Shown piece by piece: positions 43,762 through 45,827 of a stretch of 64,000 nt of DNA. Under the pieces are notes generated by a model, which was not told the DNA's origin, did not search any database, and worked only from the letters and a program-made list of their open reading frames with translations. The position numbers were made by a program, and so were the translations under genes. Within the stretch, counting starts at the first letter, position 1. Each line of letters begins with the position of its first letter. The stretch is from an uncultured Clostridia bacterium (lineage in GTDB: Bacteria; Bacillota; Clostridia; Christensenellales; Borkfalkiaceae), in assembly GCA_947627665.1 (NCBI GenBank), contig CANQWX010000008.1, positions 1 through 64,000 on the forward strand, in the 5' to 3' direction.

Positions 43762-45827
43762 CGGATCTTCGCCCCGCTTGCGACCGCTTTTTCGGGAGAG
43801 AGCAGCGAGAGGTTTCCCGCTTCGTCCTCGGCGCAGAGGATCATGCCCTCGGAGAGCACGCCGCAGAGCTTGACGGGCTTCAAGTTGGTGACGAGCACCA
43901 CCTTTTTCCCCACCATTTCCTCGGGCGTATAGAATTTGGCGATGCCCGAAACGACGGAGCGGACTTCCTCCCCCACCTTCACCGTTTCGTGCAGCAGTTT
44001 TTCGCTTTTTTTCACCCTTTCGCAGGCGATCACTTCGCCGACTTTGAGTTCGATCTTTGCAAAGTCGTCGATCGTGATCTGAGATTTCTCGGCTTCGCTC
44101 GAAATGACGGCGGGGGCGTGGCCCGCGGCCGCTTCGCTCGAAATGACGGCGGGGGCGTGACCCGCGGCCGCTCCGCTCGAAGCGGGCGCGGCATTCCCCT
44201 CTCTTGGCGCCCCCTTGGGGAGCTGGCCCGAAGGGCCTGAGGGGGTGTGATGTTCTCTCACGAGCTTTTCCACTTCCGCAAGCTCCTTTTCCGTGTCGAT
44301 GCGCGGGAAGATGGGCGGCAATTTTTCCACCTTTGCGCCCGCCTGCCACGCCCCGAAGGACGCGCTCTCAAAGCCCATGTCTTGGGGGCAGGAGAAGCTC
44401 TGCAAGATGAGAGAGGTCGCCCGCGTCAAGAACGGTTTCAACAGCACGGCGCAGATGCGGCAGACTTCGGCAAGATGATAGAGCACGGTGCCGAGCCGCT
44501 CCCTTTGGGCGGGGTCCTTGGCGAGCAGCCACGGCGTGGTTTCGTCGATATACTTATTGGCGCGCCCCACGAGGGCGAAGATGTGTTCGAGCGCTTCGGG
44601 CGCGTTGAGCCGATCCATCGCGTCCCTGACCTTGGGGAGCAGCCCGTTTGCCATCTCTTCGAGTTCGAGATCGAGCGCCGTTCTTTCGCCGCAGGGCGGA
44701 AGGCTCCCGAAATTCTGCACGATCATCGCGGTCGTGCGGGAAACGAGGTTGCCGAGGTCGTTGGCAAGGTCGGCGTTGATGCGCTTCAAAAAGCGCTCGG
44801 TGGTGTATTCGCCGTCGCTGCCGAAGGGAATTTCGCGCAGCAGGAAGTAGCGCACCGCGTCCGCGCCGTACCGCTTGACCAGCTCGTAGGGGTCGGTCAG
44901 CTCGGGGCGGGCATTCTCCTTGGACTTGCTCAGTTTTTCGCCGCCGATGAGCAGCCACCCGTGCCCGTAAATTTGCTCGGGGAGCGGCTCGCCGAGCGCC
45001 ATCAAGAGGGCGGGCCAGACGATGGCGTGGAAGCGCACGATCTCCTTGCCCACGAGGTGCAGCTCCGCGGGCCAATATTTTTTGTAAAGACGGTCGTCCT
45101 CCGAGCCGTATCCGAGCGCGGAGATGTAGTTGGAGAGGGCGTCGATCCAGACGTAGGCGGTGTGTTTGGGGTCGAACGGGAGCGGCACCCCCCACTTGAC
45201 GGTGGTGCGGGAAACGCTCAGGTCTGTCAGCCCCGCCTTCAAGAAGTTATTCACCATCTCGTTGACGCGGGACTTGGGCTGCAAGAATTCGGGCTTGTCC
45301 GCATACAGCTTCAGGAGGCGGGGGGCATATTTGGAGAGGCGGAAGAAGTAGCTCTCCTCCTTTTGGAGGGTGACCTCTCTGCCGCAGTCGGGGCATTTCC
45401 CCTCTTTGAGCTGCGCCTCCGTCCAGAACGCCTCGCACGGGGTGCAGTAGTAGCCCTCGTACTCCGCCTTGTAGATGTCGCCGCTGTCATAGAGTTTTTG
45501 GTAGATGCGCTGCACGCACCTCACATGGTCCTCGTCGGTGGTGCGGATAAAGCGGTCGTAGCCGACGTCCAAAAGCTTCCACATGTCTTTGAGCTGATCC
45601 ACGAGGGGGTCGATGAAGCCGCGGGGGGTAACGCCCCGCTTTGCCGCCTCTTTTTCCACCTTTTGGCCGTGCTCGTCGGTGCCCGTGAGGAAAAAGACGT
45701 CCTCCCCCATGAGCTTATGGAAGCGCGCGAGGGCGTCGCAGATGACCGTGGTGTAGCAATGCCCGATGTGCCAGTTTCCGCTGGGATAGTAGATGGGCGT
45801 GGTGATATAGTAGGTATTTTTTGCCAT
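43758..45827 (-). CDS. metG: Methionyl-tRNA synthetase with C-terminal tRNA-binding domain
   Basis: TPIYYPSGNWHIGHCYTTVICDALARFHK, GEKLSKSKENA, C-terminal FAKIELKVGEVIACERVKKSEKLLH. Confidence 0.97.
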   Translation of the reverse strand: MAKNTYYITTPIYYPSGNWHIGHCYTTVICDALARFHKLMGEDVFFLTGTDEHGQKVEKEAAKRGVTPRGFIDPLVDQLKDMWKLLDVGYDRFIRTTDEDHVRCVQRIYQKLYDSGDIYKAEYEGYYCTPCEAFWTEAQLKEGKCPDCGREVTLQKEESYFFRLSKYAPRLLKLYADKPEFLQPKSRVNEMVNNFLKAGLTDLSVSRTTVKWGVPLPFDPKHTAYVWIDALSNYISALGYGSEDDRLYKKYWPAELHLVGKEIVRFHAIVWPALLMALGEPLPEQIYGHGWLLIGGEKLSKSKENARPELTDPYELVKRYGADAVRYFLLREIPFGSDGEYTTERFLKRINADLANDLGNLVSRTTAMIVQNFGSLPPCGERTALDLELEEMANGLLPKVRDAMDRLNAPEALEHIFALVGRANKYIDETTPWLLAKDPAQRERLGTVLYHLAEVCRICAVLLKPFLTRATSLILQSFSCPQDMGFESASFGAWQAGAKVEKLPPIFPRIDTEKELAEVEKLVREHHTPSGPSGQLPKGAPREGNAAPASSGAAAGHAPAVISSEAAAGHAPAVISSEAEKSQITIDDFAKIELKVGEVIACERVKKSEKLLHETVKVGEEVRSVVSGIAKFYTPEEMVGKKVVLVTNLKPVKLCGVLSEGMILCAEDEAGNLSLLSPEKAVASGAKIR
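44081..44248. repeat. Repeat modules embedded in-frame in metG (linker region)
   Basis: GAGATTTCTCGGCTTCGCTCGAAATGACGG plus a 39-bp unit starting at 44092, 44131 and 44170 (last partial); then ggcgcccccttggggagctggcccgaagggcctgagggg. Confidence 0.9.

What the first reader, a model, noticed from the sequence alone, without database searches (positions are those of the whole stretch)
44081..44248. In-frame repeat modules and a 39-bp tandem unit in the metG linker
Between the MetRS body and its C-terminal tRNA-binding domain, the protein reads HTPSGPSGQLPKGAPREGNAAPASSGAAAGHAPAVISSEAAAGHAPAVISSEAEKSQITI. The DNA is the same GAGATTTCTCGG...TCGAAATGACGG and ggcgccccctt-ggggagctggcc modules seen between genes. 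A 13-codon unit (39 bp) is tandemly repeated. An essential gene tolerates these modules at an interdomain linker.
Basis: partly seen in the sequence, partly recalled or inferred. Interest (0 to 1): 0.8.

Follow-up and report, generated by a model that had tools for sequence, protein, structure and literature searches.

The report
Repeat DNA riding in-frame inside metG
In a group of uncultured rabbit-gut Clostridia, short repeat sequences that normally sit between genes have also entered, without breaking the reading frame, the flexible joint of the essential enzyme MetRS (and exposed spots of at least two other core proteins); this kind of intrusion was best known from Rickettsia.

Summary
Confirmed and extended. 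metG (43758-45827, minus strand) is intact and is the only MetRS gene found in the genome. Its interdomain linker (about residues 524-583) is largely dispersed-repeat DNA: a 42-bp hairpin module (44206-44247), a 39-bp unit repeated 2.3 times (44092-44181) and a 28-bp module (44081-44108) whose 10-bp end motif occurs 90 times in the genome against 0 for the reversed control. Across 65 metG linkers of the genus and near relatives the enzyme body is conserved but the linker is not: 23 hold at least 25 bp matching three or more dispersed places, from at least five repeat families; 42 hold none. The state changes at least 9 times on the MetRS tree. In the window's clade the unit number varies from 1 to 4. 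In the same genome mnmG and recO carry repeat inserts that differ among sister species. In metG each module is always read in one frame, without aromatics and nearly neutral, and the hairpin stem inside the coding DNA stays paired through double substitutions. Best reading: palindromic repeats persist in frame where the protein is disordered, then expand in tandem. Closest known case: Rickettsia palindromic elements. What moves the repeats is unknown.

The parts
43758..45827 (-). metG, methionyl-tRNA synthetase, 689 aa, intact, only MetRS gene found in the genome
   Evidence: PF09334, PF19303, PF01588, NF008900, TIGR00399; own-genome search
43770..44048 (-). C-terminal tRNA-binding OB domain (residues 594-686)
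   Evidence: PF01588, 98.7 bits
44206..44247 (-). Module B (42 bp, two hairpins), read as TPSGPSGQLPKGA
   Evidence: same module in 8 linkers of the genus, hairpin kept by double changes; related intergenic copies in the window
44092..44181 (-). 39-bp (13-codon) tandem unit, 2.3 copies; full units 44092-44130 and 44131-44169; each holds a 17-bp piece of module A
44081..44108 (-). Module A (28 bp), GTCATTTCGAGCGAAGCCGAGAAATCTC, read as VISSEAEKS; half of a dispersed palindromic element
38936..39026 (.). Complete intergenic palindromic element of the module-A family (91 bp), for comparison
50365..51195 (-). recO with an in-frame repeat insert
   Evidence: TIGR00613 over its cut-off; genus comparison
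50584..50750 (-). Dispersed-repeat insert inside recO, in place of the Cys-rich segment of other genus members
   Evidence: 55 matches in the genome, the best other copy 91% identical over 162 bp

Best explanation
The metG linker is made of pieces of short dispersed palindromic repeats that normally lie between genes. Copies entered the coding sequence; those that kept the reading frame, and happened to be read in a soluble, disordered-type frame, persisted because they lie in the unstructured joint between the catalytic body and the C-terminal OB domain, where sequence and length matter little. After entry a piece of module A plus spacer was duplicated head to tail in 39-bp (13-codon) steps. 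Shown: repeat identity, intact frame, single gene copy, hypervariable linker against a conserved body, unit-number differences between species, the same in mnmG and recO, filled and unfilled sites in sister species. Inferred: that entry is by mobility or copying of the repeats, that slippage or unequal recombination makes the tandem units, and that tolerance rather than benefit keeps them.
For: Linker modules match dispersed repeats in the own genome and in six relatives (44-92 matching places per genome). 23 of 65 linkers carry such DNA, 42 none, reversed control near zero. Repeat linkers are longer (median 77 against 44 residues). At least 9 changes of state on the MetRS tree; near-identical sisters with plain and repeat linkers. 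Unit number 1 to 4 within the clade. A roughly 100-bp element nested inside module C in frame in L054. mnmG and recO inserts absent from most of the genus. Linker modelled as unstructured, pLDDT below 50. Core protein conserved and full length.
Against: No mobilising enzyme was identified; PF01797 transposases are absent from most repeat-bearing genomes. Target-site duplications were not tested. Modules B and C sit at similar places in different clades, so part of the pattern may be old insertion plus loss or conversion. No transcript, protein or population data.
Confidence: 0.82

Rival explanations
1. One or a few old insertions in an ancestor, followed by divergence, loss, and gene conversion or recombination with intergenic copies; the appearance of many separate entries is then misleading.
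For: Each module is always in the same strand and frame in MetRS; B lies at the N-terminal side and C at the C-terminal side of the linker in several clades; the module-A family in linkers has a single origin on the tree.
Against: Plain linkers nest among repeat linkers in near-identical sisters: G047 and G044 share a plain linker while G008 and G020 have different modules. Modules are 94-100% identical to present-day intergenic copies over about 50 bp. The nested insertion in L054 is a separate event.
Confidence: 0.25
2. The repeats are kept because they do something: the tandem array tunes linker length and so MetRS dimerisation or tRNA binding, as a variable locus.
For: Unit number varies among close species and the unit is a whole number of codons; used frames lack aromatics and are near neutral.
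Against: Different species use unrelated modules at the same place and 42 of 65 use none; similar inserts sit in mnmG and recO, which have unrelated functions; whole-codon units are expected from purifying selection alone.
Confidence: 0.1
3. Assembly or binning artefact, or a decaying metG copy.
For: All genomes compared are draft metagenome assemblies, and repeats are assembly-prone.
Against: Independent assemblies from several samples show open, full-length genes with such linkers; only one MetRS gene found; core conserved with no stops.
Confidence: 0.02
4. Chance resemblance: GC-rich proline/glycine/alanine linkers look like GC-rich repeats.
For: Some modules are GC-rich; the reversed control also scores for L021 and weakly for a few others.
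Against: Matches of about 50 bp at 94-100% identity in the same or sister genomes; module A is not of low complexity; the reversed control is zero for most linkers.
Confidence: 0.02

Closest known systems
Rickettsia palindromic elements (RPE-1 to RPE-7; PMC3767692, PMC10969869) and Wolbachia palindromic elements
   Same: Dispersed palindromic repeats of about 100-150 bp, in frame inside unrelated conserved genes, among them aminoacyl-tRNA synthetases (PheRS beta, IleRS); solvent-exposed sites; different element groups near the same site in orthologs; ATGAC motif (the module-A element here also ends in ATGAC).
   Different: Host is an uncultured Clostridia genus, not Rickettsiales; the genes here are metG, mnmG and recO; usually pieces of elements rather than whole ones; in-frame tandem amplification; five or more families in one linker. 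Sequence homology to RPE families was not tested.
Intragenic MITEs (enterobacterial ERIC/RU elements, Coxiella QMITEs; PMC10969869, PMC5896051)
   Same: Short non-autonomous inverted repeats, mostly intergenic, sometimes fused in frame to proteins.
   Different: No parent transposon or target-site duplication shown here; repeated hits at the same protein site in many species.
REP elements with RAYT (Y1) transposases
   Same: Short hairpin-forming dispersed repeats.
   Different: A Y1 transposase gene was not found in most repeat-bearing genomes, including five of six genomes of the window's clade.
Intragenic minisatellites (VNTR)
   Same: Head-to-tail unit of whole codons with different copy numbers in relatives.
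   Different: Here the unit is itself a piece of a dispersed repeat, in a housekeeping enzyme.

Membership tests
RPE-like intragenic palindromic repeats (the class of phenomenon) | Dispersed, multicopy, palindromic repeat of about 100-150 bp | tested here: met
   Module A belongs to palindromic elements of 88-124 bp as found; end motif 90 copies. The metG copy is a half element.
RPE-like intragenic palindromic repeats (the class of phenomenon) | Present between genes and in frame inside unrelated conserved genes | tested here: met
   metG, mnmG, recO
RPE-like intragenic palindromic repeats (the class of phenomenon) | Orthologs without the insert exist | tested here: met
   42 of 65 metG linkers without repeats; mnmG without insert in most of the genus
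RPE-like intragenic palindromic repeats (the class of phenomenon) | Insert lies in an exposed, non-core part of the protein | tested here: inconclusive
   AlphaFold: MetRS linker pLDDT below 50 without secondary structure, model only fair; MnmG model poor
Rickettsia palindromic elements proper | Found in Rickettsia or Wolbachia | tested here: not met
   Relatives are uncultured Clostridia
Rickettsia palindromic elements proper | Sequence homology to RPE families | not tested
   RPE sequences were not at hand; only the short ATGAC motif is shared
MITE | Terminal inverted repeats | tested here: met
   GTCATTTCGA..TCGAAATGAC ends in complete elements
MITE | Target-site duplication and a parent transposon | not tested
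   No systematic search was made
REP/RAYT | A Y1 (PF01797) transposase in genomes that carry the repeats | tested here: not met
   One copy in G000; none found in G006, G007, G024, G049, G060, G033, G042, G051 (incomplete drafts)
Bacterial MetRS with C-terminal OB domain | Catalytic and tRNA-binding domains over curated cut-offs | tested here: met

The most novel reading that the evidence does not exclude
In this Clostridia lineage exposed sites of core proteins (MetRS linker, two MnmG loops, the RecO finger) are standing landing sites through which several families of dispersed palindromic repeats keep entering proteins, under a strict filter: each MetRS module appears in only one of its 4-5 open frames, always one without aromatics and with net charge between -1 and +1, and mnmG and recO use other frames that meet the same rule. 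The DNA hairpin is kept by double substitutions even where this changes the amino acids, so the repeats still evolve as DNA elements while being translated.
Probability: 0.4. Interest if true: 0.75.

Novelty: new variant of a known kind. Interest (0 to 1): 0.58.

Why it matters
In-frame entry of palindromic repeats into proteins has been treated largely as a Rickettsia peculiarity; a 2024 review calls it only conceivable that a similar process shaped proteins of other prokaryotes (PMC10969869). Here dozens of related species, with filled and unfilled sites in near sisters, make it possible to measure how often repeats enter proteins, which frames survive, and whether they ever gain a function.

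Tried and rejected
A 729-aa open frame at C1:108681 that contains a recO-type repeat was rejected as an in-gene case: the repeat lies upstream of the likely start of a NAD-synthetase-like gene. A Y1/RAYT mobiliser was rejected as a general cause. Rfam shows only a tRNA in the window. Hits of the repeat mask in LRR-like genes (46309-47245, C7:54465-55518) were set aside as internal protein repeats, judged by eye. L021 is counted among the 23 repeat linkers but is doubtful, because its reversed control scores equally. A first blast was contaminated by unmasked metG copies and was replaced. Alignment A3 used a truncated partner and was not used. Paper searches on MetRS linkers and dispersed repeats found nothing relevant. 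The C -0 score is the self-complementarity of module C, not a second frame.

Full report
What was checked. The window's metG (43758-45827, minus strand) encodes a full-length MetRS: NF008900 891 bits against a cut-off of 598, TIGR00399 and PF01588 intact. It is the only MetRS gene found in a 1.81-Mb, 89% complete draft genome; the next matches are weak and partial and lie in long open frames of 829-1064 codons, as expected for related Leu/Val/Ile synthetases (that naming is inference). The 39-bp tandem repeat is real (44092-44181, 2.3 copies, 96% matches).

The linker is repeat DNA. On the minus strand it reads: module B (44247-44206), a short stretch without a detected match, two and a third 39-bp units, and module A (44108-44081), which runs straight into the OB domain. 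Module A is half of a dispersed palindromic element, GTCATTTCGA-(variable hairpin)-GAGAAATCTC-spacer-GAGATTTCTC..TCGAAATGAC, 88-124 bp when complete. The end motif GTCATTTCGA occurs 90 times in the genome against none for the reversed control. In 269 kb of fetched DNA about 10% of repeat-masked bases fell in called coding sequence although about 73% of that DNA was called coding, so entry into genes is rare or mostly removed.

Relatives. In 61 genomes of the genus, plus named genome contigs records that are uncultured Clostridia (the closest ones isolates named 'Lapin', which I read as rabbit samples), the MetRS body is conserved: 24 sequences aligned with the window protein are 74-90% identical to it. 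The linker between the same two landmarks runs from 37 to 122 residues. After masking metG itself, 23 of 65 linkers have at least 25 bp matching three or more other genomic places and 42 have none; the reversed-sequence control is zero for most. Repeat-bearing linkers are longer (median 77 against 44 residues among those of the same linker type, p = 3e-8, without correction for relatedness). At least five module families are involved: A (VISSEAEKS), B (TPSAPTGQLPLKGA), C (CPPPASGGGVGEGVR), D (HPERSEGS), E (PTPLPPSTGGGK). A search with six linkers joined gave 44-92 matching places in each of the six genomes they come from. On a tree of MetRS without the linker the repeat state changes at least 9 times; the fewest changes for A, B, C, D and E are 1, 7, 4, 5 and 4. 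These are parsimony changes on a quick tree and include possible losses. Near-identical sisters differ: G047 has a plain linker, G008 has module B, G020 another module. In one linker (L054) a different dispersed element of roughly 100 bp sits inside module C, in frame; related copies lie elsewhere, including window 57706-57835.

Unit-number variation. Eight close MetRS (six genomes and two database proteins, P0001 and P0002) have 1, 1, 1, 1, 2, 3, 4 and 4 VISS units. Units within a species are more alike than between species, as expected from recent amplification or homogenisation. Variation within one species could not be tested.

Other genes. The same genome has a 71-residue insert in mnmG (G000:C7:57088-59184; residues about 535-605). 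Most of the genus matches MnmG as 1-534 and 606-698 without it, and members of the window's clade have different inserts there. A second mnmG site near residue 137 is filled in G033, G051, G032 and G045. In recO (window 50365-51195) the Cys-rich segment of other genus members is replaced by repeat modules that differ in six sister species. The window's recO insert has 55 matches in the genome, the best other copy 91% identical over 162 bp. So two of 34 called genes in the window carry such inserts.

Frame and hairpin. In MetRS each module appears in one strand and frame only, although four or five frames are open. The used frames have no aromatic residue and net charge between -1 and +1. This rule was drawn from the MetRS data. 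By my reading of the alignments, mnmG and recO use other frames that also satisfy it: C on its minus strand (TPTPPPDAGGG, G033 mnmG), E on its minus strand (PPPMEGGRGVG, G007 and G024 recO; PPPVEGGRGVG, G033 mnmG). It is not absolute: an mnmG insert contains QFCFSKRGTSRRR, and recO of G049 has SFRVERSG. The hairpin of module B is paired in all eight linkers, with 4 of 5 pairs changed on both sides in some species. Related sequences can exceed the shuffle control without structure; the slid control (50-52% paired at +/-1, against 100%) is the better comparison. The double changes could come from insertion of different repeat copies or from palindrome-correcting template switching.

How it most likely works. 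Repeats enter coding sequence by an unknown route. Frame-breaking and disruptive insertions are lost. Those in disordered, exposed sites survive, and once there they are duplicated or deleted in whole-codon steps. An AlphaFold model gives the MetRS linker (527-590) pLDDT below 50 and no secondary structure, while most of the OB domain is at about 70-80; the model as a whole is only fair (mean 65). The MnmG model is poor (mean 55) and is only weak support. From general knowledge, not tested here, the C-terminal OB domain of bacterial MetRS helps dimerisation and tRNA binding and can be removed in E. coli with activity retained; this fits a tolerant joint.

Comparison. The closest known phenomenon is the Rickettsia palindromic elements, found in frame in PheRS beta, IleRS, DNA polymerase III alpha and others, with different RPE groups near the same site in orthologs and an ATGAC motif (PMC3767692; review PMC10969869). 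What is seen here works like an RPE system; homology to the RPE families was not tested, and the host belongs to another phylum. The authors of PMC3767692 faced the same ambiguity (hot spots for separate insertions, or one old insertion that diverged); here filled and plain linkers in near sisters, and the nested insertion, favour at least some separate entries. The RAYT route is disfavoured. Copy number alone does not decide: G005, G012 and G039 have 95-171 copies of the module-A end motif while the linkers examined of G005 and G012 show no module.

Verdict. New variant of a known kind.

Noticed in passing
window 2675-3113 (+): A tRNA gene is followed by a 146-bp tandem array (2.6 copies, 99%) whose unit repeats the tRNA 3' end (ACTCCTGTCGGACACACCA) plus a terminator-like hairpin; it may mark repeated integration or duplication at a tRNA end.
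   Followed up: no
window 50584-50750, inside recO 50365-51195 (-): The Cys-rich (zinc-finger-like) segment of RecO in most of the genus is missing in the window's clade and replaced by repeat modules that differ in six sister species.
   Followed up: partly
G000:C7:57088-59184 (L176:9589-11685): mnmG carries a 71-residue in-frame repeat insert; a second insertion site near residue 137 is filled in other species.
   Followed up: partly
L054 metG linker; window 57706-57835: A dispersed element of roughly 100 bp is nested in frame inside another repeat module in the metG linker of a rabbit MAG; related copies are intergenic in this window.
   Followed up: partly
window 56812-57550 and G000:C21:8498-9236: Two open frames of equal length (246 aa) share a 39-bp stretch with AGAATG repeats.
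   Followed up: no
G000 intergenic regions, for example C1, C21, C24: The intergenic repeats are mosaics: after GAGAAATCTCAACCT comes either the palindrome's second half or a CTTGCTGTCCCT..AGGGAAAGTACC module, as if modules were strung together.
   Followed up: no
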